A stretch of DNA of 64,000 nucleotides from the NCBI RefSeq assembly GCF_000237805.1, contig NZ_CM001376.1, positions 1,416,349 to 1,480,348 on the forward strand, written 5' to 3'. Positions within the stretch are counted from its first letter, which is position 1. The number at the start of each line of letters is the position of its first letter. Shown piece after piece: positions 869-55,929 of the stretch. A program made the position numbers and the translations under genes. Below the pieces are notes generated by a model. That model worked only from the letters and a program-made list of their open reading frames with translations. It made no database searches and had not been told where the DNA came from. The DNA is from Jonquetella anthropi DSM 22815. GTDB lineage: Bacteria; Synergistota; Synergistia; Synergistales; Dethiosulfovibrionaceae.

Positions 869-883
869 CGAGGAGGATATGCC

Positions 884-7090: not shown

Positions 7091-10000
7091 TGGTCTGTCC
7101 TCACGCTCACGATCTGAGAAAGCCCCGGCTCGCTCATGGTGACGCCGAACATGGTGTCGGCCCCCTCCATGGTCTGACGCCGATGGGTCATGACGATCAG
7201 CTGAACCCGGGTCGCGTATTCGGCGGCCAACTGGGCGAACCGGCTCAGGTTGACCTCGTCAAGCGCCGCGTCCACCTCGTCGAGGACGGCCAGCGGTGCT
7301 CCGGCGGTCTCCATGGCGGCAAAAAGAAGAGCCAGAGCCGTGAGGGACTGTTCGCCGCCCGAAAGCTGCGCCAACAGGAGCGTTTTCTTTCCCGGTGGGC
7401 GGGCGGTGATTTCAACGCCGCTGTCCCACGCCCCCGCCTCTCCCTGCCATGACAGGTGCGCTTCGCCGCCGCCGAAGAGCCGGCCGAACAGGCTGTTGAA
7501 TCGGACGTCGATTTGATCCATCGCTTTTGAAAAGAGCTCGGCGGCCTGCCGGTCCGCCTGCGCGATGACGTCCTGAAGCGACCTGATGCCATTTTTGACG
7601 TCCGCCGTCTGGTCGTTCAGGTACGTCAGCCGCCCGTCAAGGGACGCCTGCTCGTCCAACGCGCCGACGTTGACCGGACCTAACTCGCGCAGAGCCCGCT
7701 CCGCATAGCGGGCTGCCGATTCAACCGCTTCGCGCCGCTCGTCGCCCGGGGCAAAACTCTCCGGGTACGGCCACCGCGCTTCGCTGGCCGAGATCATTTC
7801 CTCCAAGCGGACGTTGCTTCTTTCGGCGTCAGCTTCGACGGCGGCGCGTTCAGCACGGATTTTTTCCAGCCGAGCCGAGGCCGCGTCCGATCGGCGGATG
7901 AGCCGCTCCGTCCGAGCGGCGTCAGAAGCGCCGCTTCTCTCCAGCTCGTCAAACAGGCCCCGAAGGTCTGACATCTGAGCCTCCAGAGCCCGCCGCCGGG
8001 TTAACGCTTCGGTCTCCTGCTCCTTCGCCCCGTCAAGCCTCGTCTGAGCGGTTCGGCGGTCGTTTTCGAGCCGTACCAGCTGGGACGACAGGGCCATCTC
8101 TTCGCCGAGCAGGCGCTGAAGTTCCTGCTTGGTGTGGTCGGTCCGCTCCTGCGCCAAAAGCTCTTCGCCCCGAAGCTGGGGCAGCGCGTCCTCGGGAGCG
8201 GCGTCGTTCCCATCCGGCGAGGCGGCGAGCGATTCAATTTCACGCTCCAGCTCTTTGAGACGGCTTTCCGTCTCCGAGGCGTAACGCTGCCACTCTTCCT
8301 GTTTCTGCTGGAACCGACCGCGGCGCTCTTCCAGCTCTGCCAACTCGGCGGAAACGGCACGCAAACTGTTTTGAAGTCCTTCCAACTCTTCTTTTGCCCG
8401 GGACGTGACGGCCCGGTGACGGTTCAGCTCTTCCTGTGCGGTCTTCTCCGCTTCCTCGGCCTGAGTCAGCTCGGCTCTCAGTCGCCTCGACGCCGCTTGA
8501 GCTTCCTCAAGGCGGGCGGCCAGCTCCGCGGCCTGACGGCGCGCCGAGATGGCGCCAGCATGAGAACTTTTTCCGCCGCTGACGGCCCCGGACGGCGAGA
8601 AGACCTCGCCTTCGAGCGTGACGACCGAGAAATGAGCGCCTCGGCTGAGCGCCGCGCCGGTCGCGTAGTCTTCCACAACCAGCACGCCTCCCAGCAGGTG
8701 ATCGACGGCCTTTTTCCACTCCGGCGCTGGCTTGACTAATTCGGACGCCCGGCCGATTACGCCCTTTCCTGACGGCAGAGCGCCAAGCCGCGCTTGGCAC
8801 CGCTCCAACGGCAGGAAGGTCGCCCGCCCGCCGGAACGCCCTTTCAGCAGGTCGATGCCCTTCTGGGCGGACGCGGTGTCCTCCACCAGAAGCCAATACT
8901 GCCGCCCGCCGAGATACGCTTCCATTGCCGCAGCCAGCTCGGCGGGGCACTCGAACGATTCGGCGGCTGGGCAGGCTTTGATGTCGAGTTTCCCCAATGA
9001 GATGGCAGCTAAGACCATCTGAACCGGACGGGGATACGCGCTTTCAGCGGCCGACGACCGGGCGGCCTCCAGCTCGCCTTCAAGGGAAGCGGCAGTCCGC
9101 CGCGCGCCGGCCTGGCGCATGGACAGGTCCTGCGCGAGGGACGTGGCGTTTCTCATTCCCTCGACCAGCTCTTCGGTTCGGTCTTCCAGCGCCTCAAGGG
9201 CTCTGTCCCCGCGGGCCACGCAGTCGGTGAGCCGCCGGTGTTCGGCTTCCAGCTCGGCCTGCCAGGCCTCCGCCGCGGCGGTTGAACTGGCTGCCCCTGA
9301 CAGGCGCCCCCGCGCGTCCGCCAGAGCCTCCTGATACGAGGCCCGACGCTCGGTCAGCTCGGACAACTTTTTCTGCCGAGACGCGGTCGCGTCGCTCTGC
9401 CGGCGAATACGATCCTCCAGCTCGGCGATCCGGCCGGACAGCTCGGCCAGCCGAGTCTGACACTCGGAAAGCCGGGCCGACGCGCTCTTGCGGTCTTGGG
9501 CCAGTTTCGTTTGGCCCGCGCAGAGCCGCTCTTTTTCCTCGTCCAACCGACTCAGCGCGAAGGCGTTTTCCCGAATCGTCCCCTGAGCGGCCGTCTCTGC
9601 CTGCCGGGCGTTTTCGAGCATCGGCGTCAGCTCGTCCTGCCTCTCCTGAAGCTGAGCCCGGCGCTTGAGGTACTCGTCGCCCCGGCGGCGAAGCCGATCG
9701 AGCTGGCTCGACCAGCCGGCGTTCCACCAAGTGGCCCTGCTGAAGCCGGCCTGCAGTTTTTCGCCCCGAGCCTTCGCGTCGGCAAGACGCCGCTCTTCTT
9801 CAAAGCGCCGCAGGTGGTACAGCCGGCCATTCAACGTTTCCAGACGTGCCTCAAGCTCCTGAGCCCGCTTGGCAAGGGCGGCCTGAGGGGCGATTTCATC
9901 CCGACGGGCCGTCAGCTCGCCGATCAGCGTCTGAAGGCGCAGCAGCTCGTCCTGAGCCTCTTTCAGCTCAAGCGCGGCGTCGTCCCGACGGCGGCGGTAC

Positions 10001-36601: not shown

Positions 36602-36633
36602 GTTTCAATTCAGACACGTCCTAGGGCCACCAT
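36602..36633 (-). repeat. degenerate terminal CRISPR repeat
   Basis: It begins with the intact GTTTCAATTC of the repeat and keeps a TAGGGC core, but the middle and end are changed and about 1 nt is missing. It sits 21 nt outside the last perfect repeat, shorter than the 32-37 nt of true spacers. Decay at the leader-distal end is usual, which agrees with the leader lying at the other end. Confidence 0.65.
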
Positions 36634-36654
36634 AGCGTAAATACGTCCGCCTAG

Positions 36655-38145
36655 GTTTCAATTCGCGCGCCCGTGTAGGGCGCGACATGACGGCCTAATG
36701 ATATGAGTCTTAATGTACTGTGTTTCAATTCGCGCGCCCGTGTAGGGCGCGACGGTTGAGTACCCGGATAACTTGTTGCTGGTCGATGTTTCAATTCGCG
36801 CGCCCGTGTAGGGCGCGACGGCGCCGGGCAGTTTCTGCTTTGACGCTGGCGAGGTTTCAATTCGCGCGCCCGTGTAGGGCGCGACGCCATGCTCAAGCCG
36901 CTATCGGACATCAAGCAAGGTTTCAATTCGCGCGCCCGTGTAGGGCGCGACAACGGCGCTGCCCTACGACGCGGGCGCCGAGACGGTTTCAATTCGCGCG
37001 CCCGTGTAGGGCGCGACAAGAAAAGATGAGGGCTACGCCGAGCCTACAGATGTTTCAATTCGCGCGCCCGTGTAGGGCGCGACGCAAGACTTTGCCTAAG
37101 CTTTTGCAGGCGAATGGTTTCAATTCGCGCGCCCGTGTAGGGCGCGACAATACTGGGTTTTCACGGTCAAAGGCACGTGGGTGTTTCAATTCGCGCGCCC
37201 GTGTAGGGCGCGACAGGCCCATTATCACGTGATGGTGATGTACGAGGGGTTTCAATTCGCGCGCCCGTGTAGGGCGCGACACACTTCAAGCCATAGGAAC
37301 ACAAAGCCATGATGGTTTCAATTCGCGCGCCCGTGTAGGGCGCGACCTACGACCCCCCAAGAGGTCGTTGGTCGTTGGTGTTTCAATTCGCGCGCCCGTG
37401 TAGGGCGCGACCGAAGACAGAGGAGGAAAAATAACCGCCCCACAGCGTTTCAATTCGCGCGCCCGTGTAGGGCGCGACGTCTGCGCAAAATCGATACGTT
37501 TTTTGCAAAAAATTTGTTTCAATTCGCGCGCCCGTGTAGGGCGCGACAAATCCGACTGCAAAGACAGACTTTCGTCATAGTTTCAATTCGCGCGCCCGTG
37601 TAGGGCGCGACCTCCGCGGGGAGCGGAGTTGTTAGCTTGCGGTGGGTTTCAATTCGCGCGCCCGTGTAGGGCGCGACTGTAGACGCCCAGCCCTACGTTT
37701 GCCCCGTTAATGGTTTCAATTCGCGCGCCCGTGTAGGGCGCGACCTTCCCTGAAGCCTTTTATGGCGTATTCAATAAAATGTTTCAATTCGCGCGCCCGT
37801 GTAGGGCGCGACTGCTGAAGCTCGTTGGTTTTTGCGCCACATGCTTGTTTCAATTCGCGCGCCCGTGTAGGGCGCGACAAGCCTAGGGCTGTTGAGTTAA
37901 GGGCCGCCTATCGCGTTTCAATTCGCGCGCCCGTGTAGGGCGCGACCAAGCTCGCGCACGCACGAGACCAGCGAGACCCTGTTTCAATTCGCGCGCCCGT
38001 GTAGGGCGCGACAGCGCTGGCATGCCTGGTTTGCGCCAAGCTGTGAGTTTCAATTCGCGCGCCCGTGTAGGGCGCGACGTCTTGTCGGAGAATACCCCAA
38101 CTGGACAATCGCCGTTTCAATTCGCGCGCCCGTGTAGGGCGCGAC
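36655..38145 (-). CRISPR. type I-C CRISPR array, 23 repeats and 22 spacers
   Basis: Twenty-three 32-nt repeats, all identical as far as I can read, begin GTTTCAATTC and end GGGCGCGAC on the plus strand. Repeat starts: 36655, 36722, 36788, 36854, 36920, 36986, 37052, 37117, 37183, 37249, 37315, 37380, 37447, 37516, 37580, 37646, 37713, 37781, 37847, 37915, 37981, 38047, 38114. Spacers are 32-37 nt. The reverse complement ends GAATTGAAAC, the canonical I-C polarity, so crRNA is read from the minus strand. The array is then downstream of cas2 and the newest spacers are near 38145. The repeat can fold into a GC-rich hairpin, as needed for Cas5c cleavage. Confidence 0.99.
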
Positions 38146-38369: not shown

Positions 38370-38660
38370 CTATAAAATCAGGTTCCCCTGCGGGTTGTAG
38401 CTCTTTTTTGCCCCGATAACTTCTACCCGTCTCTGCCAGTTGGCTCCCAGCATGTAAAACCTTAGGCTGTCGTGTTCCATGTCAATTTCATTGAGCAGAT
38501 CCCTTCTGAGCTGAACCCACTGAGCTGGTTCGAGCAGGCATTCAAAGACCGAGAATTGCACGCGCTGGCCCCAGCTTTCGCAAAGTTTTGCAACGTGGTT
38601 CAGCCGACGCGTTCCTCCTTCTCCGCACACGTTGACGTCATAGGTAATCAATACGAGCAT
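38370..38660 (-). CDS. cas2: CRISPR-associated endoribonuclease-fold protein Cas2
   Basis: A 96-residue Cas2 of the I-C type. It begins MLVLITYDVNVCGEGGTRRL, with the Asp in the first strand (YDV), and has a central GQRVQFSVFECLL. It forms the scaffold of the Cas1-Cas2 integrase. It lies 10 nt downstream of cas1 and is the last cas gene before the leader. Confidence 0.98.
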   Translation of the reverse strand: MLVLITYDVNVCGEGGTRRLNHVAKLCESWGQRVQFSVFECLLEPAQWVQLRRDLLNEIDMEHDSLRFYMLGANWQRRVEVIGAKKSYNPQGNLIL

Positions 38661-38670: not shown

Positions 38671-39699
38671 CTACTTCAGGAAAAACGGCGGGTAAAAATC
38701 AAGGTCCCCGCGCAGGAATCGCGCCAACAACATCGCCTGAACGTGAGGCAGCAAGCCGAAGGATATTTTTTCGCCTAAAACTGGGTGAATTATTTCCGTC
38801 CTCTTTCGATTTTCCCACTCGTTAAGAAAAATTTCCTTGCGCGCTTTTTCTGTTAAGGCAACTCCGCCAGCTTCGTCCGTCTCAAAATCGTTTGCCTGAA
38901 GCTGTTCGCGGTTTACTAACGCGAGGACAAACCGATCGACGACGACGGCGCGAAATTCTTCCATCAAGTCAAGCGCTAAGCTGGGACGTCCGGGGCGGTC
39001 TTTATGAAGGAATCCCACAGAAGGGTCAAGTCCGACGCTTTCCAATACGCCGGTTATTTCCGCGGCGAGCAGCGAGTACCCCAGCGACAGAAGCGCGTTG
39101 ATGGGATCCGACGGCGGCCGTCGAGAACGGCCGTGAAATGAAAAGGTCTCCCGGTTCTTTAAAATCATAGAGTCGAAACAGCGAAAATAGATGTTGGCCG
39201 CGTCGCCTTCGAGGCCTCTCAGCTCATTGAGGTCGGTTATTGTGAAACCCTTGAGCTTGACAAGCAGCCCAGCCATGTCCCTGACAGCTTCATCAAATAC
39301 ATTTGTTTCTCTTTCTCGAGCATGGCGAAGCAGGACGGTCCGGGCGTTGGATATTTTGCTCAGTAGGAAAGCAGTTGCCAGTTCAGCCGTTTGAACCGGG
39401 TCATCGGCACGCCGAAACTGCATCCATCGGAGCAGGACGTTGCCTCTGACTGGTCCGCTGATTCGTCCCCGAAAGCGCCCATATACCGATAGATAGTTGA
39501 TCGTGACGTTGTTAGCAAGACACAGGTTCATCGCGTCGGGAGTGAGCATGACTGATCCGAAACAGACAATTTGCTCCAAAATATGGACAGGAAACTGCTG
39601 GGGCGCCTGATCTTTCGCGCGAATTACCAGCGCTCGTCCGCTGCATGAGATTTGCCCTTCGTCATAGCTCAGGTAGAGCGTGTTTTTAAGCTGTTTCAT
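38671..39699 (-). CDS. cas1: CRISPR integrase Cas1 (subtype I-C)
   Basis: A 342-residue Cas1. The catalytic set is visible: Glu in LEGDAANIYFRCF, His in GLDPSVGFLHKDRPGR and Glu in ALDLMEEFR. It inserts new spacers at the leader end with Cas2. It overlaps the end of cas4 by 14 bp, and the adaptation trio cas4-cas1-cas2 is compact. Confidence 0.98.
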   Translation of the reverse strand: MKQLKNTLYLSYDEGQISCSGRALVIRAKDQAPQQFPVHILEQIVCFGSVMLTPDAMNLCLANNVTINYLSVYGRFRGRISGPVRGNVLLRWMQFRRADDPVQTAELATAFLLSKISNARTVLLRHARERETNVFDEAVRDMAGLLVKLKGFTITDLNELRGLEGDAANIYFRCFDSMILKNRETFSFHGRSRRPPSDPINALLSLGYSLLAAEITGVLESVGLDPSVGFLHKDRPGRPSLALDLMEEFRAVVVDRFVLALVNREQLQANDFETDEAGGVALTEKARKEIFLNEWENRKRTEIIHPVLGEKISFGLLPHVQAMLLARFLRGDLDFYPPFFLK

Positions 39700-40309
39700 G
39701 GATGATCGCCTCTACGGTATTCAACACATATTGCCTTGTTTGACCTCTACCTCGAAGCTCCGGACCGCACAAGTCCTTCATTGAACAGCTTTTGCACTTT
39801 TTATCCGCCTCAGGCGGCGGGAGAACTCCGCTCTGCAGAAGCGAGCGCGCTCTGCAGCAGAGTCTCTCCACCAGATCCCTGAGGTCTTTCGTCAACGTCA
39901 CTTCAGTTCGCCGGCGCGTTTGGGCGTAAAACAGCACACCGACGGGAACGGAAACTTGCAGCATTTCTTCAAGACAGAGCGCTTGGCCGCAAAGCTGCAC
40001 TTTGTCTGCCATGCCGCCGGCACCGCGTCCCCGTTTGTATTCCACTGGGAGCGGCGTCCAGCGCCCACGCCGCTGCGGGAGACGGACGCCGTCGCTTGAC
40101 TGGTAAAACTCCACCGCGTCGCTTACCCCGTAGAGACCGAGTCGAACACACCGAAGCGGAAGTCCCCGAACCGAAAGTACGCCGTCACGAAACTCCTTTT
40201 CGTTGCTGTGAACGCGCTGATGTACGTCTGTCCCCGTCGCCGTCAGGTAATTTTCTTCCCATTCGCCTTCCATGTGAATGAGCGCCCACTGGCGCTCACA
40301 GAAAAGCAA
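39686..40309 (-). CDS. cas4: CRISPR-associated exonuclease Cas4, start unclear
   Basis: At least 207 residues. It has all four Fe-S cysteines: one in LLFCERQWA and three in CKSCSMKDLC near the C-terminus. It trims and orients prespacers. The reading frame continues upstream of the TTG at 40309 with family-like residues (FLSELQH precedes LLFC) but contains no ATG, GTG or TTG before a stop inside cas7. An ATG at 40377, just after the cas7 stop, is in another frame; one more G in the GGGG run at 40366-40369 would join it to the Cas4 frame. So either a CTG or other rare start is used, or there is a frameshift. Confidence 0.9.
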   Translation of the reverse strand: MLFCERQWALIHMEGEWEENYLTATGTDVHQRVHSNEKEFRDGVLSVRGLPLRCVRLGLYGVSDAVEFYQSSDGVRLPQRRGRWTPLPVEYKRGRGAGGMADKVQLCGQALCLEEMLQVSVPVGVLFYAQTRRRTEVTLTKDLRDLVERLCCRARSLLQSGVLPPPEADKKCKSCSMKDLCGPELRGRGQTRQYVLNTVEAIIHETA

Positions 40310-40383: not shown

Positions 40384-41292
40384 CTATATCAGGACGATTT
40401 TTTTCCGCTCAGTCAGTTCCTGCCCGTCCAACGTCAGCCGATAATCGCCGAACGACCGAGGCGTGACGCCGTCGCTCACTGCAACGGCGATCTTTTCAAA
40501 CAAGTCGGCCGCCGGGGCGGAACCTAGCGCGGACGAGTGCTTGAAGATGACGAGCCGACGGGCGGTCATCAAGCCTCTGGCGGCTGACCGGTCAATTTCG
40601 AACATGTTCAGTAGCGCGTCCCAGAAAATTTCCATGTCCTCTTCGGAGAACCCGGTCTGCTGGGCCAAAAACGGAGAGACGAAGCCATGAGCGCAGTACA
40701 GGGCGTACGGAACCGTGAATTTTCTGCCCATGGTCCGTTCTTTTTCCGCGTTCTTTTCGTTGGTGACGGCCATGCGAGTGATGCAGTGTTCCGCGACGAC
40801 GATCGGCAGCTGCGAGCGGGCGAAGGTCAGCTGAATCGGACCGCGAACCTGCCCGGCGGTCTTTTTCCCGCCGCTGTCGCTGCTGCCGGTTGACATCACC
40901 GCTCCAAAGGCGCGGACGTCGTAAAAACGCGCGCACATCAGCTGCTGAGCGGCCATTTCAACCTGCGGGTTCTTATCTTTCTTTCCATCTTTCTTGTTCT
41001 CGCCGGAAGATTTTTTCTCCGCGTCGTCCCACGCTTGGCCGATCATGGTGTTCAGGACGGCCTTCTCCTTGATGAAAACCTCGTATCCCTCTTTGGGCTG
41101 GCCTTCCGGCGTCCGGCAGGCCATCATGATGTAGTTGCGGACTTTTCGTTTCAAGCACACGTCGCTGACAAGACCGTGACCTGTCTCCAAATCGATCCGC
41201 GGCTGGTTGTCCATGTCGGGGTCGCCGTTCGGGTTGCCGTCCTGCACGTCAAAATAAAACGCGAAGTCGTATCGGTTCGTTAAAGTCGTCAT
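40384..41292 (-). CDS. cas7: Cascade backbone protein Cas7 (Csd2, subtype I-C)
   Basis: A 302-residue Cas7c. The N-terminal RRM-type strand and the family motif FYFDVQDGNPNGDPDMDNQP are clear, and the lysine-rich insertion AEKKSSGENKKDGKKDKN falls in the expected loop. Multiple copies coat the crRNA in Cascade. The start overlaps the cas8c stop by 4 bp (ATGA). Confidence 0.98.
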   Translation of the reverse strand: MTTLTNRYDFAFYFDVQDGNPNGDPDMDNQPRIDLETGHGLVSDVCLKRKVRNYIMMACRTPEGQPKEGYEVFIKEKAVLNTMIGQAWDDAEKKSSGENKKDGKKDKNPQVEMAAQQLMCARFYDVRAFGAVMSTGSSDSGGKKTAGQVRGPIQLTFARSQLPIVVAEHCITRMAVTNEKNAEKERTMGRKFTVPYALYCAHGFVSPFLAQQTGFSEEDMEIFWDALLNMFEIDRSAARGLMTARRLVIFKHSSALGSAPAADLFEKIAVAVSDGVTPRSFGDYRLTLDGQELTERKKIVLI

Positions 41293-41693
41293 CTCTGCTG
41301 TTCCTTCCTTTCTTCATCGTTATTCAGCTGAAGATCCTCTTTTTTTGCTGACACGTCCTGATTCTGGTGATAGTAGCCGAGGAAAAATTTCCCCTGCTCG
41401 TAGAGGTTAAGCTGTCTGGGAAATTCGCCGACCCCTTCCATAACGCTGGCGAGCTTATTTTTCCACCATACGGCGCGTGGAAGACGATCTTGCGATATTT
41501 TCTGCAGATGGTGAACTGATAACTTAAAAAGCTTTGGGAACACGATTCCGGGCGTGGACGCCGCAGCGCCCAAAAACCGACTTGTAATGCTCTTGTTCAA
41601 TTCCCCCTGAGCGATCCGTTGAATTGACTCTAAGATAGAAAATACCCTGCCCAGAACGTAACTGGGATCTTGACTCGCGTCGTCCAGTTTCAC
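41289..41693 (-). CDS. cas11c: internally started small Cascade subunit Cas11c
   Basis: Within cas8c, and in the same frame, a GTG at 41693-41691 is preceded by AAAAGGAGGT with 7-nt spacing, an almost perfect ribosome site. It would yield a 134-residue protein that begins VKLDDASQDPSYVLGRVF, matching the last part of Cas8c. In type I-C systems the small subunit Cas11 is known to be made from an internal start at just this place (LDxxSxDPxYxLGR). I see the site directly; translation is inferred. Confidence 0.78.
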   Translation of the reverse strand: MKLDDASQDPSYVLGRVFSILESIQRIAQGELNKSITSRFLGAAASTPGIVFPKLFKLSVHHLQKISQDRLPRAVWWKNKLASVMEGVGEFPRQLNLYEQGKFFLGYYHQNQDVSAKKEDLQLNNDEERKEQQR

Positions 41694-43088
41694 GCCAAAG
41701 ACCTCCTTTTGTTCGCCCGCTGAAGTTCGCCACCGGTTCAGCGTCCCTCGAAGGAGTGATGCCAGTTCCGGCCTCACTTCCTGTTCTGCCCGAATCCGCA
41801 CGATTGCCCGCTGGAAGCCAGCCAACGGGTACGGCACGCCGTCCACCACGCTGGACAATAATCCGCTGGGAATGTTGGGCGGCAGCGATTCGATTTTTCC
41901 GTCCAACGCCATTGCCCAGAGGATTCGGTCCAGCGGGAAGTTCACGACTTGGCCGCCGTAGGCGTCGATGGCCGTATCCTCCAAGTGACGGCGCAGGTTC
42001 GCCGCAAAGTGTTCCGTGCTGTCCACCCGCCAAAGCCTGACGGCAATTCTTGCCGAGTTTGCGGTCAGTCCCAAGAGGCAGAAGCGCCCTTTTTCGACGA
42101 CCAGATCGGTTCCCTGACGGATATGGTCAAAAACGACTTTTAATCGGCCGACCTGCTTGTCCGGGTCTCCCTGCAACACGGCCCGAAAGTTCCCTTCTGA
42201 CGCCGGATTTTCGCCGCCGATCGGCGCGTCCTTCGGAACCGACCAAAACACATAGGTGTCTTTTCCGATGATGGCCTTGTTCTTCTCCGAGGCGAGGAGC
42301 TGTTTTAGCCCTGAGGCGTAATCGAAAGCCGCTGCTTGGGAAACCGGCGCGTTGTAGCCCTGTTCTTTGTAATATGAGTCGTATCCCGAGTCTTTCTGGC
42401 AGCTCACCAACGACGCGCCGGTTTGTTTTCCCCCGCGAATCAAGAAGTCCGAGTGAATTCGGGCCAGCGGCGCCCTTTGGCCAGTAATCAGGCAGACGCC
42501 TTCCTCGCTGGGCTCAAAGGCTGCCAGATTTCTGGCCGCCTCTTGGGCCGGAACGGGCAGGTCACCGTCAATTAAACGGAACGTCAAGTTCCCGCCCGCT
42601 TCAAGGACGTTTCCCAGCGTTAGGTCTTTTAGGGCGGCGTCTAAGCCCTCTGGATTTTCGTAAAAATTGATGATCGCCTGAATTTCCTTAGAAAGGGTCC
42701 GGTCTTTCGACCGTTTTAGGCAGTCCTTCGTTTCTTGAATAAACGCGTCCAGCCGCTGGCGAAGGCCTTGATCGTCCTGCGCCGTGTGGATTTTTTTCTC
42801 CTTGTCGATTTCCGCACCCAACAGGTATTTGGCGTTGTCCCACAGAACTTTTGCCTTCACTCCGCTCGTGCGACTGACCGTATCCGGCACAAAATACCGT
42901 TTGCCTTTGAGGAACGATTTCCCTTTCGGCCCGACTTGCTCTTCCTGCATGTCATAAAACTGGTGAAATCGGCCGGTTGAATCAATTTCCACCAAAAACT
43001 TGAACTCCACGTCGCCGCAGCCGGTGGGAATGCCTGTTCCCACTTTCTGGCGGCGTTGCTCGTATTCGTACAGCGCCTGCAGAATCAT
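41289..43088 (-). CDS. cas8c: Cascade large subunit Cas8c (Csd1)
   Basis: A 599-residue Csd1/Cas8c, the PAM-recognising large subunit of the I-C effector. It begins MILQALYEYEQRR; family landmarks include SFLIRGGKQTGASLVS-like text around the middle (RIHSDFLIRGGKQTG) and LPRAVWWKNKLAS near the end. The C-terminal 134 residues are also a separate product (Cas11c). It overlaps cas5 upstream and cas7 downstream by 4 bp each, giving coupled translation of the effector genes. Confidence 0.97.
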   Translation of the reverse strand: MILQALYEYEQRRQKVGTGIPTGCGDVEFKFLVEIDSTGRFHQFYDMQEEQVGPKGKSFLKGKRYFVPDTVSRTSGVKAKVLWDNAKYLLGAEIDKEKKIHTAQDDQGLRQRLDAFIQETKDCLKRSKDRTLSKEIQAIINFYENPEGLDAALKDLTLGNVLEAGGNLTFRLIDGDLPVPAQEAARNLAAFEPSEEGVCLITGQRAPLARIHSDFLIRGGKQTGASLVSCQKDSGYDSYYKEQGYNAPVSQAAAFDYASGLKQLLASEKNKAIIGKDTYVFWSVPKDAPIGGENPASEGNFRAVLQGDPDKQVGRLKVVFDHIRQGTDLVVEKGRFCLLGLTANSARIAVRLWRVDSTEHFAANLRRHLEDTAIDAYGGQVVNFPLDRILWAMALDGKIESLPPNIPSGLLSSVVDGVPYPLAGFQRAIVRIRAEQEVRPELASLLRGTLNRWRTSAGEQKEVFGVKLDDASQDPSYVLGRVFSILESIQRIAQGELNKSITSRFLGAAASTPGIVFPKLFKLSVHHLQKISQDRLPRAVWWKNKLASVMEGVGEFPRQLNLYEQGKFFLGYYHQNQDVSAKKEDLQLNNDEERKEQQR

Positions 43089-43801
43089 CGCAATACCGCC
43101 TCGCTTTCCCAGTCGGGGACTTTAATAATTCCCCGGTCCATCTTGGCCCTGAAAAACGCCGGCTGCGGGTCCTCCGGCCGCGAAAAATCAAGGTCGTACA
43201 GCATAATTCCCAAGTCTCTCGTTTCGTCGATCGGCTGGCGTTTCTCCGTTTCCGGGTGGTCTATCAACCGCACCTCGCTGCAGGAAAATTCTCTGCACCC
43301 CAAATATGGCGCCATAAAGTGCTGCCCCTTTCGGGCTCGGCGCTCAAAAATCCCGTAGTACTTTCCGGGGTTTTCCCCTGACCGAATAATTTCCCGCTCG
43401 TTCTCGTCCCCCAAGCAGTCCGGCACCTGCAAGAATGTCCTCGGACGCTTGTGAGGCGGGATGTACTCCAGCTCGGCGACCAATCGGTACCGCACGTCCC
43501 GAAGGAGAATCGACGCTTTCTGCTGCCTGTGGTCTTCGATGCACAGCCCGCCGGAACTGAGCTTCATCAGGGCGCCAACTTCGTTCCGCCTGAACGACAG
43601 CCAGCGAATCGGCTCAAGCACGTGAATTTCTCTGATAATCCACCGAATCGCCGGTTTCCAGAAGATGGCCGTAAAAATTCCCCGTGCCGCCGACGGCGTG
43701 ATGACGTCGTAGCTCACCCGCTCAACCTTCATTTCCGGCCGGGTGAAACACGCGAAGTCTCCCGCCACCTCCAGACAAAAACTTTTGTTAAAAAAATCCA
43801 T
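43085..43801 (-). CDS. cas5: CRISPR RNA-processing protein Cas5c (Cas5d)
   Basis: A 238-residue Cas5 of the I-C kind, which replaces Cas6 and cuts the repeat RNA. The N-terminal strand SFCLEVAGDFACFTRPEMKV and the helix ITPSAARGIFTAIFWKP are characteristic. The catalytic Tyr/Lys/His positions cannot be fixed without an alignment. The ATG at 43801 has AAGGAGG with 7-nt spacing; an earlier ATG at 43819 is less likely. It follows cas3 after 28 nt. Confidence 0.96.
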   Translation of the reverse strand: MDFFNKSFCLEVAGDFACFTRPEMKVERVSYDVITPSAARGIFTAIFWKPAIRWIIREIHVLEPIRWLSFRRNEVGALMKLSSGGLCIEDHRQQKASILLRDVRYRLVAELEYIPPHKRPRTFLQVPDCLGDENEREIIRSGENPGKYYGIFERRARKGQHFMAPYLGCREFSCSEVRLIDHPETEKRQPIDETRDLGIMLYDLDFSRPEDPQPAFFRAKMDRGIIKVPDWESEAVLR

Positions 43802-43829
43802 TTGCTTCCCTCCTTTCACGTTGAAATTT

Positions 43830-46220
43830 TTATCGGATAAAAAATCCTACTGACGGTTGGCCGATGGCTCCGGTTTCCAAGTCGTACACGAACGCCTCGG
43901 ACTGGACAAAATATCCTTCATCCGTCTCGTCAACAGCTCCAGAATACCGGAGTTCTTTCAGTTTGCTTTCCGGAATGCTCACCGAATACCGCTGAAGCGC
44001 CCGCAGCAGCTGGGGATTCGCCCCATTGCGTTTGAGCTCCCCAATCAGTTCTGCTCCGGCCCCGTAGGCCACAAAAACGCTCTGACGTCCTTCGTCGTCA
44101 ATCATGTGAAAATCTCTTCCAAACGTGCGGAACTGAAATTCAAAACACTCAGCGTTTTCCACAAGCAGTTCGTAGTATTTTGACTGGTCAAACGTCCCGA
44201 CGTCCCGATACAGCCTGTTGAAGTATTCCTTTATGACTGACGGGCAAAACAAATCAAACTCCGTCTTTTGGCCCAGCATGGCCTTGAAGGTCTGCTCGCC
44301 TTTGAGCAGCAGTCCCACGGGAGACGGCTTCATCGGCGAGAAAAGGTACAGCTGCCCCAATTTGCCCAGCTTGTTCAGTTGCCCTTCCCGGTTCGCCCGG
44401 CCAGCGGCCTGAACCGCCGAGTCAAGCCCGCAGAGCGCCCGAAAGACCACCGGAAAATCGATATCGACTCCCGCTTCAATGAGCTGGGTGCTGATCACGC
44501 GAACGGTCCTGCTCTCGTCTTTCAGGAGTGCTTTTATCTCGCCGATTCGATCGCTCCGGTGCTGAGGGCACATGTCCGCCGACAGGTGGAATAAATTCTC
44601 GCCGGAGCGGCTTTTTATCACTTCGTACAGCTCCCGACAGTCGCCCCGCCGGTTGACGACGGCGAGGACTCGCTGGTGTTTCAGCAAGTCGTCGGCCAGC
44701 TCGTCCCACGTTCGCGGCTGGGTCGGGTTGTAATCCCGTACCCATTCGGCCCGCAACAGCTTTTGATAAAGGTCCGCGCCCGCCGGAACAATTTGGCGAG
44801 GCTCCGGCAGACCGGGAAACGAAACGTTCTGACCGTCGCTAAAAGTCCGCGTTAAAGCCGGTTGGGTTGCGGTGCACAGAAGGACGGTCACGCCGAAATG
44901 CTTAACCAGTCCTTTCAGGACGGACAGCACGCCGCGCATATGCTGCAGCGGGAGCATCTGGGCCTCGTCGAGAATGATGACGCTGCGGGAAATATTATGT
45001 ATCTTTCGGCAGAGCACTCGACGGTCGGACAGCAGGGACTCGAAAAGCTGAACGTTTGTGGTGACCACAATCGGCGCATCCCAGTTTTCAGCCGCTAGTT
45101 TGTTCTGAAGCGTTTCGCGCTCCGGCAGGATATTGGAGTGGTGCTCCAGAACTGCCCCAGTGTCACCGAAGATGCCGCGCAGCACGTCCGCTGTTTGTTC
45201 GATTATCGAAACATATGGTATTGCATAGATGATTCGGCGCCTACCATTTGTCAAGCAGTGTTCCAAAGCAAAAGCCAGAGACGCAAGCGTTTTTCCGCCG
45301 CCGGTCGGCACGGTCAGCTGAAAGAAGCCGGGCTCGCAGTGACCGGCCTGTCGGCACCAGCCGAGTACCTTCGATCTGACTTCGTTGACCGGGCTTTTTT
45401 CCGCCAGCCGTTCCTTTTCGTCCATATAAGAGTCGAACCGGTGCTTCAGGTCCTGCATGTCGAACTGGCGGGACCGTTGTGCGGCCTGGTCGGGGCGGCA
45501 GAATCGTTCGGTGTCTAGCGAGTCCGCGTCAACCAGAGCCGAGTAAAGCATTCGAACCCATAGATTGAGATATTCTCTCGGGACATCCTCCGAACCGTCA
45601 TCGGCAAACCATTTTTCAAGCCACTGGCGGATTTCCTCATTCAAGTTCAACGCTACTGAATCGAGACGCGTCAGCTCGGCCGGGTAGTCCACCTGCCGCG
45701 CACCTGTCCCGAGCGCCTGCCGAAGGGGATTCAGAAGGCGGCTGACGTCCAGATCGCCGTTTTTCGTCGCCAGCCGGTTGATGAGCGCCCCGCGGCCGCC
45801 CGTGCGCCAATCAGCCAGCCCAGCGTGATGGCCGGCAATGGCGTAGGCCAACCCAGTCAAAGGTCCTGAAACGTTCGGCTCGTCCCAGTTGTCCCAAAAG
45901 CCTTCCAGTACGGCGGCCGCTCCGGCTTCGCTGTGTGATACTTTATGAATAGGATTTTTCTTCTTGTCGTCGTCCTTGTCTTCATCTTCGGAACTTTCTG
46001 AGGAAGCGCTCTCGTCATAGTCTTGAACGCGCAAGTATTCTTGCCACTGACACGTACTTTTACCTAAATCATGGTACATCCCAGCGAGCCGCCCCCAAAA
46101 ACCATCTCCCCATTGATTAGCAAAAGACTCCGCCAGCGCGGCAGTGCCGCGAACGTGCTCTTCTACTGTCTGTTCGATAAGATGGTCTTCCTCGCGTCGA
46201 GTGTGAGCGATTGCTTTCAA
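43830..46220 (-). CDS. cas3: CRISPR-associated helicase-nuclease Cas3
   Basis: A 796-residue fused HD nuclease and DExD/H helicase that degrades target DNA after Cascade binding. HD motif MYHDLGK has H50-D51. An acidic, Ser/Asp-rich stretch lies at 67-90 within the HD domain. Walker A PTGGGKT is at 305-311, DEAQ at 418-421, and SAT-equivalent CTATQP follows. Motif VI is QAAGRANR. The start is TTG at 46220 behind AAAGGAGG with 9-nt spacing. It is the first gene of the operon. Confidence 0.97.
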   Translation of the reverse strand: MKAIAHTRREEDHLIEQTVEEHVRGTAALAESFANQWGDGFWGRLAGMYHDLGKSTCQWQEYLRVQDYDESASSESSEDEDKDDDKKKNPIHKVSHSEAGAAAVLEGFWDNWDEPNVSGPLTGLAYAIAGHHAGLADWRTGGRGALINRLATKNGDLDVSRLLNPLRQALGTGARQVDYPAELTRLDSVALNLNEEIRQWLEKWFADDGSEDVPREYLNLWVRMLYSALVDADSLDTERFCRPDQAAQRSRQFDMQDLKHRFDSYMDEKERLAEKSPVNEVRSKVLGWCRQAGHCEPGFFQLTVPTGGGKTLASLAFALEHCLTNGRRRIIYAIPYVSIIEQTADVLRGIFGDTGAVLEHHSNILPERETLQNKLAAENWDAPIVVTTNVQLFESLLSDRRVLCRKIHNISRSVIILDEAQMLPLQHMRGVLSVLKGLVKHFGVTVLLCTATQPALTRTFSDGQNVSFPGLPEPRQIVPAGADLYQKLLRAEWVRDYNPTQPRTWDELADDLLKHQRVLAVVNRRGDCRELYEVIKSRSGENLFHLSADMCPQHRSDRIGEIKALLKDESRTVRVISTQLIEAGVDIDFPVVFRALCGLDSAVQAAGRANREGQLNKLGKLGQLYLFSPMKPSPVGLLLKGEQTFKAMLGQKTEFDLFCPSVIKEYFNRLYRDVGTFDQSKYYELLVENAECFEFQFRTFGRDFHMIDDEGRQSVFVAYGAGAELIGELKRNGANPQLLRALQRYSVSIPESKLKELRYSGAVDETDEGYFVQSEAFVYDLETGAIGQPSVGFFIR

Positions 46221-46259
46221 GGTTTGCGACCTCCTTTGGCCCCAACATATGAAATGTTC

Positions 46260-46289
46260 TATATAATTTAATTTAAAATTTCATTGTAA
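46260..46289 (-). promoter_or_regulatory. candidate cas operon promoter
   Basis: On the minus strand TTACAA (46284-46289) and TATATA (46260-46265) are 18 bp apart in a markedly AT-rich island, about 40 nt upstream of the cas3 start. Just downstream an AACAT/ATGTT inverted pair could be an operator. The match to consensus is moderate. Confidence 0.45.
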
Positions 46290-46542
46290 TGAGTATCCGT
46301 CTTTTCTTTATCTTTGTCAAGTGATCAATTCATCACGACGAAGTTATTCGACCTAGCAACTTATGATCTTCTTTCATTTATGCCCATACTAACGCTGTGT
46401 ATCGCCACTCTGGCGCCGATAGCCATGCCTCATCTTCGTGCACTTGTACAATAACCGAACACTGTCATGCTATACTCTTTGCAACGCGCGGTAAAAACGT
46501 CTATCACAAACAGACCTAGCGTTCCGTCCTCTTCTGCAGTTT
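46290..46542. other. non-coding stretch upstream of the decayed mini-array
   Basis: I see no gene here. The base composition is lower in GC than its surroundings. A plus-strand TATACT at 46471-46476, about 65 nt before the first repeat remnant, could be a leader promoter for the mini-array, but no convincing -35 box is at the right distance. Confidence 0.3.
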
Positions 46543-46618
46543 GACGTGTGAATTGAAACTATATTATTTAGCTTATTAAACTATTACGTCGCGCCCTCAC
46601 GGGCGCGTGAATTTCAAG
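46543..46618 (+). CRISPR. decayed CRISPR repeats, first block
   Basis: A partial repeat (46543-46559, ending GTGAATTGAAAC), a 28-nt spacer-like gap and a 31-nt degenerate repeat (46588-46618, GTCGCGCCCTCACGGGCGCG then TGAATTTCAAG) read in canonical polarity on the plus strand, opposite to the main array. The second repeat is one base short and has a changed 3' end. Confidence 0.75.
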
Positions 46619-46658
46619 TCTTTACCCAGCCGCGCGTACTGCACCTGTTCCACGTTGA

Positions 46659-46700
46659 GCCGGCCTGCTGTCCGTTTTTGAACAGCAGGCCGACTTTGCT
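46659..46700 (+). terminator. hairpin terminator, copy A
   Basis: A 13-nt stem (46659-46671 with 46682-46694, one mismatch) has loop CCGTTTTTGA and then TTTGCTTTTCC. It is the upstream copy of the hairpin at 47095. Confidence 0.6.
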
Positions 46701-46732
46701 TTTCCACAGTTCTCAGTTCTCGGTCGACGTCT

Positions 46733-46738
46733 TATAAT
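46733..46738 (+). promoter_or_regulatory. -10 box remnant in copy A
   Basis: TATAAT lies at the place that corresponds to the promoter of the intact ADP-ribosylglycohydrolase gene in copy B. The downstream gene is dead, so any transcript would read into the mini-array at 46911. Confidence 0.4.
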
Positions 46739-46774
46739 TAGAAAAACGCCAGCGTTTGAAGGAAAGCGGTCACG

Positions 46775-46910
46775 GTTAGCCTGATCATTGGCGACTTTTG
46801 CGGCTCGTCCCCCGAGGGACGGTCGGCGCTCTAAAAACTTCGCGCGACTCTGCCGCCAACCCGCTGCTCCGACGCTCCCTCAGTTGCCACAGGCGACCCC
46901 CTGCTCGACC
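46775..46910 (+). pseudogene. decayed 5' fragment of an ADP-ribosylglycohydrolase gene
   Basis: In the frame starting at GTT 46775 it reads VSLIIGDFCGSSPEGRSAL then TAA, against MIGPIIGDFCGSPYEGRPAP of the intact gene at 47230. The start codon is gone, there is an in-frame stop, and small indels follow. The similarity continues (the regions around GTCCGACGAT, GGTTGCCAC and CCCTGCTCGAC in the intact gene) to about 46910, where it is cut off by a CRISPR repeat. About 55 codons of the gene are represented. Confidence 0.85.
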
Positions 46911-47058
46911 GGCGCGTGAATTGAAACTGGGACTGCGTCCAGCGCAAAGAACCACCTGAAGTCGTGCCCTACACGGGCGCGTGAATTGAAACAATCAATC
47001 CGTCGAGTTTGATACTTCCAAGGTAGAGTCGCGCCTTCACGGGCGCGACAATTTCAAG
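46911..47058 (+). CRISPR. mini CRISPR array, second block (three repeats, two spacers)
   Basis: A partial repeat (46911-46927, GGCGCGTGAATTGAAAC), a 33-nt spacer, a nearly perfect 32-nt repeat (46961-46992, two changes from the main array), a 35-nt spacer (46993-47027) and a 31-nt degenerate repeat (47028-47058). Polarity is canonical on the plus strand, opposite to the main array. The central repeat should still fold and could be cut by Cas5c if transcribed. Confidence 0.85.
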
Positions 47059-47094
47059 CCCTTACCCGCGCGTGTTGCACCTGTTCCACGTCGA

Positions 47095-47140
47095 GCCGGC
47101 CTGCTGTCCGTTTTTGAACAGCAGGCCGGCTTTGCGTCTT
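47095..47140 (+). terminator. hairpin terminator, copy B
   Basis: A perfect 13-bp stem (47095-47107 with 47118-47130) and 10-nt T-rich loop run into TTTGCGTCTTT. It would stop transcription leaving the mini-array before the next promoter. Confidence 0.7.
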
Positions 47141-47144
47141 TCGC

Positions 47145-47176
47145 GGTTCTTCGTTCCCGTCATGGCGTCATATAAT
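47145..47176 (+). promoter_or_regulatory. promoter of the ADP-ribosylglycohydrolase/dipeptidase operon
   Basis: TATAAT at 47171-47176 is preceded by a weak -35 region (TTCTTCG near 47147). The start codon lies 53 nt downstream of the -10 box. Confidence 0.55.
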
Positions 47177-47229
47177 AGGGAGCCTGAGACGATTTCCGCC
47201 GCCCTCCTGACGGCTGAAGGAGGAACGTT

Positions 47230-48030
47230 ATGATTGGGCCAATCATCGGCGACTTTTGCGGCTCGCCCTACGAGGGGCGGCCGGCACCGAAAAACTTAAC
47301 TCAACTTCTGTCGCCGGCCTGCCGCTGGTCCGACGATACGGTTCTGTCGGTTGCCACGGCAGAAGCCCTGCTCGACGGACGGACAGACGCGGCCGGCTTT
47401 GCCGAGTACTATATGAGCTGGGGAAATCGTTATCCGCTGGCTGGGTACGGCCCGGGTTTCGCTGGCTGGCTGGCGGTCGGAGATCCGACGCAACGGCGCG
47501 CCAGTTGGGGGAACGGGAGCGGGATGCGCGCTGGGCCGATCGGCTGGGTGGCGTCTTCCCTCTCCGAGTGCTTAGCCCTCGCCAACGAGTCCGCCTCGGT
47601 CACTCACGGCCACCCGGACGGGATTCGAGGCGCTCAGGCTGTAGCCGGCGGCGTTTTTCTCGCCCGACACGGCCAAAGCGACGGGGAAATAAAGCGCTGG
47701 TTCACCGATACGTTCGGCTGGGCCGTTCCCGAGTGGGATATTTCTCTGGCCAACCGGGGCTGGGACGCGTCCTGCGCCGGCACCCTGCCGCTGGCGTTTT
47801 CCGCCTTTTTCGGCGCAGCGAGCTTTGAGGACGCGCTGCTTCGAGCCTGCCGTTTTGGCGGCGACGCGGACACGATCGACGCGATGGCCGGGGCTCTGGC
47901 CGAGGCCCGCTTTCCCGTTCCGTCTTCTTTGGCCCTTCCGGTCCTAGCTTCTCTTCCAAAGGATATGACCGCCGTTGTGGAGCGGTTTGAATTGCGCTGG
48001 CCTGCCGTGCAGGCAAGAAAGGACGTTTAA
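47230..48030 (+). CDS. ADP-ribosylglycohydrolase family protein
   Basis: A 266-residue member of the DraG/ARH family, which removes ADP-ribose from proteins or related substrates. Metal-binding motifs are present: WSDDT at residues 33-37 and GGDADTIDAMAGAL in the C-terminal third. The N-terminus IIGDFCGSPYEG is the family start. ATG with AAGGAGG at 6 nt. It is followed without a gap by an M19 dipeptidase. A decayed fragment of a second copy lies 450 bp upstream. Neither a nitrogenase reductase nor an obvious ADP-ribosyltransferase is nearby, so its target is unknown. Confidence 0.9.
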   Translation: MIGPIIGDFCGSPYEGRPAPKNLTQLLSPACRWSDDTVLSVATAEALLDGRTDAAGFAEYYMSWGNRYPLAGYGPGFAGWLAVGDPTQRRASWGNGSGMRAGPIGWVASSLSECLALANESASVTHGHPDGIRGAQAVAGGVFLARHGQSDGEIKRWFTDTFGWAVPEWDISLANRGWDASCAGTLPLAFSAFFGAASFEDALLRACRFGGDADTIDAMAGALAEARFPVPSSLALPVLASLPKDMTAVVERFELRWPAVQARKDV

Positions 48031-54167: not shown

Positions 54168-55265
54168 CTACTTCTCCTGTGCTTTATCGTGATCTGCCGC
54201 GGCCTGCTCTTCCTGCTCGCTGGCCTTTTCAGCGTCCAAGTCTTTCGCTAAGTCCTTTTTGAGTTCCTCCGCCTTGCCGTTCTTTTCGCCGTCATCTCTG
54301 CTCGCCAACACGGCCCGGCAAGCCCAGTAGTACGCTTTGGCGAGGTCTTTGTCCGTTCCCTCGCCGTTTTTGTGCATGATCGCCAAGTTATACTGAGCCG
54401 AAAAGAGCCCGCTTTCGGCCGCTGCGGTGTACCACTTAACCGCTTGGGCCTTATCCTCCGGCACGCCCTCGCCGTCGTCGTACATCACCGCAAGGTTGAA
54501 CTGCGCTTTTCCGTTCCCTGCCTCAGCCGCTTTGGTATACCATTCGATCGCCTTTGCCTTGTCCTGCGGCACGCCCTCTCCTTCGTCGTACATCAGCGCA
54601 AGGTTGAACTGCGCTTTTCCGTTCCCTGCCTCAGCCGCTTTGGTATACCATTCGATCACCTTTGCCTTGTCCTGCGGCACGCCCTCGCCTTCGTCGTACA
54701 TCAGCGCAAGGTTGTATTGGGCCCCAACGTTGCCGTTTTCGGCCGCTTTCGTGTACCACTGAACCGCTTTAGCCTTGTCGACCGGCACGCCCTCGCCTTC
54801 GTCGTACATCAGCGCGAGGTTGAACTGAGCGTCAGTATTGCCGGCTAATGCCGCTTTGGTGTACCACTCGATCGCCTTCGCGTTGTCCTCCGGCACGCCG
54901 TCGCCTTCGTCGTACATCAACGCGAGGTTGAACTGAGCGTCAGTATTGCCGGCCAATGCCGCTTTGGTGTACCACTCGATCGCCTTCGCGTTGTCCTCCG
55001 GCACGCCGTCGCCTTCGTCGTACATCAACGCGAGGCCGTACTGAGCGTCAGATTGGCCGGCTTCGGCCGCTTTCGTGAACCATTCGATCGCTTTGGCTTT
55101 GTCTTCGGTCACGCCGTCTTCGCCGCTATAATACGCCAGCCCAAGCAAGAACTGACTTTCCGGGTCATTTTCTTTGCCCTTGAACCAGTCGGGGACATCC
55201 GCTGCCCACGCCACCCCGGAAACTGCCACCAACAAGGAACAAACGACTGCAGCTATTTTTTTCAT
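54168..55265 (-). CDS. secreted Sel1-repeat protein (paralogue 3)
   Basis: A 365-residue protein: a clean signal peptide (MKKIAAVVCSLLVAVSGVAW, cut near AWA|ADVPDW), the WFKGKENDPESQ cap shared with paralogue 2, then eight Sel1 units of exactly 36 residues. The units are of the type AKAIEWYTKAALAGNTDAQF followed by NLALMYDEGDGVPED. The last unit has AKAYYWACRAVL, and a charged Lys/Glu-rich tail follows. The ATG at 55265 has AAGGAG at 8 nt. Several neighbouring units are almost identical in DNA, which points to recent unit expansion. Confidence 0.92.
   Translation of the reverse strand: MKKIAAVVCSLLVAVSGVAWAADVPDWFKGKENDPESQFLLGLAYYSGEDGVTEDKAKAIEWFTKAAEAGQSDAQYGLALMYDEGDGVPEDNAKAIEWYTKAALAGNTDAQFNLALMYDEGDGVPEDNAKAIEWYTKAALAGNTDAQFNLALMYDEGEGVPVDKAKAVQWYTKAAENGNVGAQYNLALMYDEGEGVPQDKAKVIEWYTKAAEAGNGKAQFNLALMYDEGEGVPQDKAKAIEWYTKAAEAGNGKAQFNLAVMYDDGEGVPEDKAQAVKWYTAAAESGLFSAQYNLAIMHKNGEGTDKDLAKAYYWACRAVLASRDDGEKNGKAEELKKDLAKDLDAEKASEQEEQAAADHDKAQEK
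54531..55046 (-). repeat. 108-bp tandem repeat units inside Sel1 paralogue 3
   Basis: The unit starting at 54831 and the one at 54939 differ at only about four of 108 positions. The units near 54531 and 54639 are likewise almost identical to each other. The 108-bp period equals 36 codons, so changes in copy number keep the frame. Confidence 0.88.
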
Positions 55266-55386
55266 CGTGAAATCTCCTTTTTGTAAAATGAGCCTCGATA
55301 CGAAGGCCCTTGAACCCATTTGATGAGCGGGGAAAATCTCCCCAGCGTTTCGCTGTCCGCGCCTTCTCCCTCGCCCTGCTCCCCAA

Positions 55387-55929
55387 TTATCTTGTTTGCG
55401 CTTGAGCGAGACGGTGGTCCTCCTGGGCTTGGGACGCCAGAACGCCAACTGTTTCGGCCTCCAATCTTTCTTCCGCCCGTTTTTTGAGATTGTCCGCTTT
55501 TTTATTCCCGGCCAAGAGAGCGCGGCAGGCCCAGTAGTACGTTCTCGTCATGTCCTGCGGAACTCCGTCGCCCGAATAATACATGACTGACAGGTGAATC
55601 TGCGCGTCCGAGTCGTTGCCTTCTGCCGATTTGACGCACAGTTCCGCCGCCTTTGTCCTGTCTTTGGGAACTCCGATGCCCAACTCGTACATTCTGGCTA
55701 ACTGAAACTAGGCGCGGGGATATCCGGCGTCTGCTGCCTGTAAATACAGCTCTGCCGCTTTGGCCGTGTCTTTTTTGACCCCGTCGCCTTTAAAATATGC
55801 CTCGGCCAGCCGATACTGGCTCGCCGGATCGCTCCCCTTTCTGTCGGCCCCTTCAGGACCGGCATCTGCCCAAGCAGCCCAAGCAGACGCGACGAGCGCC
55901 GCACAGACTAATGCCGCCCTTTTCTTCAC
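55387..55929 (-). pseudogene. Sel1-repeat protein (paralogue 4), broken by an amber codon
   Basis: The frame starts at GTG 55929 (GGAGG at 7 nt) with signal peptide KKRAALVCAALVASAWAAWA, then a Sel1 unit ending AADAGYPRA, then TAG at 55710-55708. It continues FQLARMYELGIGVPKD and runs to AQAQTR with the usual TYYWACRALLAG unit. Paralogues have CAG (Gln, PRAQF) at that place, so one C-to-T change explains the stop. Without it the protein would have 180 residues. Ribosomal readthrough cannot be excluded. Confidence 0.88.

What the first reader, a model, noticed from the sequence alone, without database searches (positions are those of the whole stretch)
46543..47390. Decayed mini-CRISPR array interleaved with a duplicated, half-dead ADP-ribosylglycohydrolase locus
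Two copies (46588 and 47028 onward) share a degenerate CRISPR repeat, the same hairpin, a TATAAT box and the start of an ADP-ribosylglycohydrolase gene. In copy A the gene fragment has lost its start, gained a stop and is cut off after about 55 codons, exactly at a CRISPR repeat (46911). Two spacers and a nearly perfect repeat lie between the copies. The order suggests that repeat sequences served as recombination points. A small array thus became linked to, and possibly co-mobilised with, this gene.
Basis: partly seen in the sequence, partly recalled or inferred. Interest (0 to 1): 0.72.

Follow-up and report, generated by a model that had tools for sequence, protein, structure and literature searches.

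The report
Guide RNA silencing its own CRISPR?
What looked like a decayed scrap of CRISPR array beside a duplicated gene most likely encodes a small guide RNA that steers the cell's own CRISPR complex onto the promoter of the CRISPR genes, so that the immune system holds itself down until it is needed.

Summary
In detail: degenerate type I-C repeats, a duplicated repeat-hairpin-promoter-gene block, and an ADP-ribosylglycohydrolase fragment cut at 46909/46910. [quoted passage not shown] The first unit (46546-46704) is laid out like a crRNA-like regulatory gene: ψR1 keeps the handle end of the repeat, ψR2 keeps the stem-loop but a degenerate handle, a strong hairpin follows. Its 28-nt spacer matches the cas3 promoter: TTC, then 12 positions mismatched only at 6 and 12, just downstream of the predicted -10. 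Of 1464 candidate guides in 64 other type I-C loci, one reached a seed of 11 or more; that one (Spirochaetia, L138) is itself a repeat-spacer-hairpin unit beside its own cas3 promoter, again mismatched only at 6 and 12. Best reading: a type I-C CreR (cas-regulating RNA), Cascade repressing its own operon. A review gives CreR for I-B, I-E and V-A. Expression and repression are untested; the match was noticed before the statistics were chosen. The gene duplication looks like a side event. The other two spacers have no target found.

The parts
46546..46559 (+). psi-R1: remnant of a type I-C repeat, 3' (handle) end only, GTGTGAATTGAAAC
   Evidence: 12 of 14 bases as in the main-array repeat by reading
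46560..46587 (+). 28-nt spacer-like guide (psi-S) matching the cas3 promoter
46588..46618 (+). psi-R2: stem-loop kept, handle degenerate (AATTTCAAG)
46656..46704 (+). strong hairpin with a T-containing tail, read as the end of the guide transcript
   Evidence: fold z -5.85; the terminator scan did not list it, so the role is inferred
46468..46476 (+). TGCTATACT, possible extended -10 for the guide transcript
   Evidence: by eye, position; not found by the promoter scan
46257..46287 (+). TTC PAM (46257-46259) and target site of the guide (46260-46287)
   Evidence: run of 12, mismatches at 6 and 12; TTC+seed unique in the genome
46292..46320 (-). predicted promoter of the cas operon, TTGACA-17-GATACT
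43830..46220 (-). cas3
   Evidence: NCBIfam above cut-off
43085..43819 (-). cas5c
41289..43088 (-). cas8c
40384..41292 (-). cas7
39686..40309 (-). cas4
38671..39699 (-). cas1c
38370..38660 (-). cas2 (by reading; not searched against families)
36602..38145 (-). main array: 23 full repeats and one degenerate end repeat
46768..46909 (+). dead copy of the start of the ADP-ribosylglycohydrolase gene, preceded by a promoter copy (46710-46738)
46910..47058 (+). second mini-array: partial repeat 46910-46927, spacer S1 46928-46960, repeat 46961-46992, spacer S2 46993-47027, degenerate end repeat 47028-47058
47092..47139 (+). second copy of the hairpin
   Evidence: fold z -6.27
47230..48030 (+). intact ADP-ribosylglycohydrolase gene
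   Evidence: PF03747, E 2.5e-30; below NCBIfam cut-offs

Best explanation
The unit 46546-46704 is a crRNA-like regulatory gene of the CreR kind belonging to the adjacent type I-C system. Its transcript supplies the 5' handle (from psi-R1), a 28-nt guide and the 3' stem-loop (from psi-R2), ends near the hairpin, and is loaded into the Cas5c/Cas7/Cas8c complex. The complex recognises TTC plus a seed of about 12 nt at the start of the cas operon and blocks transcription; pairing beyond the seed is poor, which should spare the site from cutting by Cas3. Ordinary crRNAs would compete for the same proteins, so cas expression would rise when crRNA is plentiful or when an anti-CRISPR disables the complex. 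Shown from sequence: the anatomy, the PAM-plus-seed match and its place at the predicted promoter. Inferred: transcription, processing, binding, repression, competition. The duplication of the start of the ADP-ribosylglycohydrolase gene is read as a separate event.
For: Intact type I-C system beside the unit. Spacer run of 12 beside TTC at the cas3 promoter, next best site in the window 8; TTC+seed has one exact match in the genome, this one. Shuffled upstream region: 0 of 20000 with TTC, 0.00185 with any PAM; shuffled spacer: 0.00195 with TTC, 0.00425 any. None of 24 main-array guides exceeds 7 on that region. Of 1464 candidate guides in 64 type I-C loci, 1463 reach at most 10. The exception, L138, is an independent unit of the same kind. 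psi-R1 keeps the handle and psi-R2 loses it, as reported for CreA genes (PMC9458426, sections read). A working engineered type I-C system represses with TTC/TTT PAMs, a spacer over a -10 box and the coding strand bound (PMC10865793, passages).
Against: Guide and promoter are both AT-rich, so some similarity is cheap; only 17 of 28 bases match overall. 2 of 25 control spacers reach 12 or 13 somewhere in the window, without TTC, so length alone is not remarkable. The match was noticed by eye before the scoring was chosen. The psi-R2 handle is degenerate in the second copy too, so its loss is not specific to the guide. The terminator scan did not list the hairpin and the promoter scan found no -10 upstream of the guide. 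No comparable unit was found in the type I-C relatives examined, and no second strain of the species was available. No expression data.
Confidence: 0.74

Rival explanations
1. A relic: the end of an old mini-array, and the spacer matches the AT-rich cas3 promoter by chance.
For: Degenerate repeats; the same degenerate end repeat and hairpin in the second copy; other decayed repeat units elsewhere in the genome; match limited to the seed.
Against: PAM, place and seed together are rare in the controls; the halves kept are the ones a guide needs; an independent case in L138.
Confidence: 0.14
2. A CreTA-like addiction module: the guide represses a small toxic RNA read from the plus strand between 46260 and 46480, and only incidentally sits by the cas3 promoter.
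For: The target holds TATAAT on the plus strand at 46262-46267 and about 190 non-coding bases lie between it and the guide (by reading); creT lies upstream of creA in known modules (PMC9458426 Figure 1 legend).
Against: No -35-like hexamer at the right distance was seen on the plus strand by eye, and the scan lists the minus-strand cas promoter at the site, not a plus-strand one; in L138 only 28 bases separate target and cas3.
Confidence: 0.06
3. One reading: a decayed array linked to and moved together with the ADP-ribosylglycohydrolase gene through recombination at repeats.
For: The duplicated block ends at a repeat, and gene and repeats are adjacent.
Against: Homologues in the five same-family genomes that have one show no repeat nearby in the sequence held; only one end of the block is in a repeat; it leaves the guide-promoter match unexplained.
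Confidence: 0.04

Closest known systems
CreR, cas-regulating RNAs of mini-CRISPRs (types I-B, I-E, V-A)
   Same: One guide from a mini-array with degenerate repeats, partial match to the cas promoter beside a PAM, predicted autorepression. Reviews seen in passages: PMC13131331, PMC12737573, PMC12948488. The primary paper (Liu et al. 2023, recalled) was not available.
   Different: Type I-C, with hairpin repeats; processing by Cas5c instead of Cas6 is recalled, not tested. No functional evidence. Part of a duplicated block with a protein gene.
CreA of CreTA modules
   Same: psi-R1 keeps the Cas5-binding handle, psi-R2 loses it; guide partly complementary to a promoter; TTC PAM (PMC9458426, abstract and sections 3 and 13).
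   Different: No toxin RNA identified here; the matched promoter is that of cas3.
Engineered type I-C CRISPR interference (Neisseria lactamica Cascade)
   Same: TTC or TTT PAM, spacer over a -10 box, coding strand bound, transcript lowered (PMC10865793, passages).
   Different: Engineered, with a 35-base spacer; here natural, with a seed-only match.
L138 unit (record titled Spirochaetia bacterium MS499-28)
   Same: Repeat-derived guide beside cas3, run of 16 mismatched only at 6 and 12, target at the -10.
   Different: One repeat with an intact but altered stem, PAM TTT, no second repeat, no gene duplication.

Membership tests
Type I-C CRISPR-Cas (the neighbouring system) | cas3, cas5c, cas8c, cas7, cas4, cas1c and an array of hairpin repeats ending ATTGAAAC | tested here: met
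   NCBIfam above cut-off for all six proteins submitted; array; cas2 by reading only
CreR | mini-CRISPR of one or two repeats outside the main array, near cas genes | tested here: met
   46546-46618, about 300 bp from cas3
CreR | guide with PAM-flanked partial match to the cas promoter | tested here: met
   (sequence and predicted promoter only)
CreR | guide RNA is made and loaded into the effector | not testable with these tools
   no RNA data
CreR | represses cas transcription in a Cascade-dependent way | not testable with these tools
   experiment needed
CreR | conserved guide-promoter pairing in relatives | tested here: inconclusive
   no second genome of the genus; no such unit in the upstream stretches examined of 28 same-order genomes with a cas3 hit
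CreTA | a small toxic RNA gene whose promoter is the target | tested here: inconclusive
   no plus-strand promoter listed at the target; RNA toxins cannot be recognised with these tools
Canonical CRISPR array (second unit, 46910-47058) | repeats of one type separated by spacers of about 33-35 nt | tested here: met
   one full repeat and two partial ones, spacers 33 and 35 nt
Canonical CRISPR array (second unit, 46910-47058) | spacers derived from invaders | tested here: inconclusive
   no exact 22-nt match in IMG/VR, chance-level phage hits

The most novel reading that the evidence does not exclude
Self-repression guides are a recurrent invention in type I-C systems, arising separately from array ends or single repeats (here a two-repeat unit, in L138 a one-repeat unit), and this genome keeps further single-spacer units (for example at 1,645,6xx) as guides for other genes. 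The duplicated gene promoter at 46710-46738 would then transcribe the second mini-array (46910-47058) independently.
Probability: 0.2. Interest if true: 0.75.

Novelty: new member of a known kind. Interest (0 to 1): 0.5.

Why it matters
In the review passage seen, CreR autorepression is given for I-B, I-E and V-A systems (PMC13131331); another review calls it widely distributed in type I (PMC12737573). A type I-C case, with a second independent one, would carry RNA-guided self-control to a subtype called one of the most common in nature (PMC7684278, abstract start in the listing), would explain why degenerate repeats sit beside cas3, and offers a compact test: one 28-nt guide, one promoter.

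Tried and rejected
Targets for the second mini-array. S1 with TTC and every sixth base free, whole genome, up to 3 mismatches: itself and three sites with 3 mismatches; S2: only itself. No exact 22-nt match in IMG/VR for either; phage records gave 6 records (best E 0.3) and 1 record (E 4). Left without a target.

Rfam on 45800-47400, E up to 1: no match. DNA-level orthologous locus in 60 relatives: none; 10 of 61 genomes, this one included, matched, by CRISPR repeats or short stretches of the gene.

Loose scan for further guides in the 64 loci (handle with up to 3 mismatches, runs of 10 or more): 9 hits against 15, 9, 7 and 15 for four reversed, scrambled or complemented handles, so noise; only the strict scan is used. 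Sixteen of the 80 loci were left out of both scans because no cas3 hit on the plus strand, or fewer than 100 bases before it, were found. The cas3 starts there are estimates from tblastn.

One search scanned the same-order cas3 loci without turning minus-strand ones, so it is superseded. In one search one other locus, L068, gave a run of 9 beside TTT after a handle-like ATTTTTCAAT with no repeat stem; not counted.

Other ectopic repeats: L062 and L047 (between cas3 and cas5), L198, L195: no guide-target pair at a PAM with a run above 6 in the loci held. The unit at 1,645,6xx: no target. The end-of-array unit at 36602: none in the window.

The arrays of G006 and G002 (closest type I-C relatives by cas3) were listed; their spacers were not tested against their own cas3 promoters.

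Papers: eight searches. The primary CreR paper was not listed; one search lists three papers that hold its title. CreR together with type I-C gave one review. I do not claim that no type I-C CreR is in print.

Organism: not identified by any search. A single 1,675,934-base contig; the best named Cas5c match is an uncultured Synergistaceae bacterium (L078, 65%), but Chlorobaculum is as close (L079, 64%). From recall it may be Jonquetella.

Full report
WHAT IS THERE. [quoted passage not shown]), cas2 (by reading), cas1c, cas4, cas7, cas8c, cas5c and cas3, whose start is at 46220. The six proteins other than cas2 were submitted to NCBIfam and each passes a curated cut-off. The finding lies on the plus strand just beyond the cas3 start and reads away from it. 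Of 27 matches to the repeat end, 23 belong to the main array and four to the finding (0.17 expected from shuffles).

THE DUPLICATION. Two blocks, 46588-46909 and 47028 onward, share a degenerate repeat, a linker, a strong hairpin, a TATAAT and the start of an ADP-ribosylglycohydrolase gene (PF03747; below the NCBIfam cut-offs). The alignment scores 332 against at most 91 in 200 shuffles. The first gene copy has lost its start codon, has an in-frame stop and frame-shifting gaps, and ends where a partial repeat begins. The junction joins the gene to the middle of a repeat over about four similar bases, so only one end of the block is in a repeat. Repeat plus linker plus hairpin is better kept between the copies (99 of 108 aligned bases) than promoter plus gene fragment (160 of 205), Fisher p 0.0025, gaps left out.

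THE GUIDE. The first unit reads psi-R1 (46546-46559), a 28-nt spacer (46560-46587), psi-R2 (46588-46618), then a hairpin (46656-46704). psi-R1 keeps the handle end of the repeat (12 of 14 bases as in the main array) and lacks the stem. psi-R2 keeps the stem-loop and has a degenerate handle. As RNA, 46549-46608 folds to the psi-R2 stem-loop (z -2.14, 7 of 200 shuffles as good); a longer piece, 46529-46618, is not remarkable (z -1.20, 21 of 200), though the stem-loop is still there. The hairpin is strong (z -5.85) but was not listed by the terminator scan, and the scan lists no promoter upstream of the guide; TGCTATACT at 46468-46476 is a candidate by eye. The psi-R2 handle is degenerate in both copies, so that loss is shared by the two copies and is not specific to the guide. 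A like division is reported for CreA genes: psi-R1 keeps the Cas5-binding bases, psi-R2 loses them (PMC9458426, sections 3 and 13).

THE TARGET. I scored consecutive matches from the PAM side, leaving out every sixth base (flipped out in type I complexes; recalled). The best site of the spacer in the window is 46260-46287, beside TTC, run of 12 with mismatches at 6 and 12 only; 13 of 15 counted positions in the first 18 match, 17 of 28 bases overall. The next best site has a run of 8. TTCTATATNATTTA has one exact match in the genome, this one. The site lies directly downstream of the predicted -10 of the promoter facing cas3, TTGACA-17-GATACT at 46320-46292. The guide would pair with the cas coding strand, as in an engineered type I-C silencing system (PMC10865793, passages).

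HOW LIKELY BY CHANCE. Shuffling the 321-base upstream region gave no TTC-flanked run of 12 in 20000 trials (0.00185 with any PAM); shuffling the spacer gave 0.00195 with TTC, 0.00425 with any PAM. None of 24 guides of the main array, its end unit included, exceeds 7 on that region. In 64 type I-C loci (of 80 fetched), 1464 handle-preceded candidate guides were run against their own cas3 upstream regions: 1463 reached at most 10, one reached 16. Against this, 2 of 25 control spacers reach 12 and 13 somewhere in the 64 kb window, beside GGG and AAG, so the length alone is not remarkable; PAM and place are. I noticed the match by eye before choosing the score, both sequences are AT-rich, and a looser scan of the 64 loci gave only noise.

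AN INDEPENDENT CASE. The exception, L138 (record titled Spirochaetia bacterium MS499-28), has one repeat with intact hairpin at 7632-7659, a guide, and a perfect hairpin at 7679-7701 followed by a T run. The guide matches 7752-7767, at the end of a TTGACA-17-TATATT promoter (7722-7750), 28 bases before the cas3 start at 7796. Mismatches fall on 6 and 12. The PAM is TTT, which the Neisseria type I-C system also accepts. Its stem differs from the local array repeat in both arms but still pairs. The promoter hexamers in L138 were read by eye.

RELATIVES. In 180 genomes of the window's own order, 28 besides this one have a cas3 hit at E 1e-60 or better. In the 29 loci from them no guide of this kind was found in the upstream sequence held. 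26 of 392 genomes of L125's phylum (the record of L125 is titled Treponema sp.) had a hit. In the 27 loci, two weak matches (L205 run 10, L215 run 9, beside TTC) lack repeat-like flanks; three scrambled handles gave none; in L196 only about 46 bases lie upstream. The unit is thus rare, fast-changing or missed by the strict scan. The ADP-ribosylglycohydrolase gene has homologues in 35 of 61 genomes, this one included; of 19 such loci examined, one (L180) has a repeat-end-like motif, without a repeat-like stem as far as I can see.

READING. A CreR-type guide gene, by which the type I-C complex holds down its own operon. A review gives CreR for I-B, I-E and V-A (PMC13131331, passage), another calls it widely distributed in type I (PMC12737573, passages). 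How it would work is therefore known; membership rests on sequence features only, since transcription and repression could not be tested. The second mini-array has no target that I could find; the duplicated gene promoter upstream of it may transcribe it, which is inference.

Noticed in passing
L159 (G000:C1:1644800-1646600), 800-890, minus strand: Another single-spacer unit: first repeat with decayed 5' part, 34-nt spacer, second repeat with intact stem and decayed handle, just after an ORF (390-797) that looks HicB-like by eye. No target found for its spacer.
   Followed up: partly
L160 (G000:C1:1651900-1654400), 934-1010, minus strand: Two decayed repeats separated by 33 nt in a stretch without obvious genes; no target in the loci or window tested.
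   Followed up: partly
window 46454-46468 and G000:C1:1652592-1652606: The 15-mer ACCGAACACTGTCAT has exactly two exact copies in the genome, one upstream of the guide unit and one about 230 bases from the decayed repeats of L160; meaning unknown.
   Followed up: partly
L047, 150-850 from the contig start, minus strand: Between cas3 and cas5 lies a small ORF (MAKGKVQHVVTHEGG...) followed by an ectopic repeat; could be a module of the CreTA/CrePA kind; no target found in the locus.
   Followed up: partly
L062, 1110-1150: Ectopic repeat with perfect hairpin, antisense, between cas5 and cas3 of a same-order relative; no target found in the locus.
   Followed up: partly
window 36602-36615: The main array ends in a handle-only repeat remnant followed by a spacer-like stretch and a hairpin; no seed match above 8 in the window.
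   Followed up: partly
window 54391-55115: Tandem 108-base repeats inside an ORF of repeated short motifs (54168-55448, minus); Sel1-like by eye.
   Followed up: no
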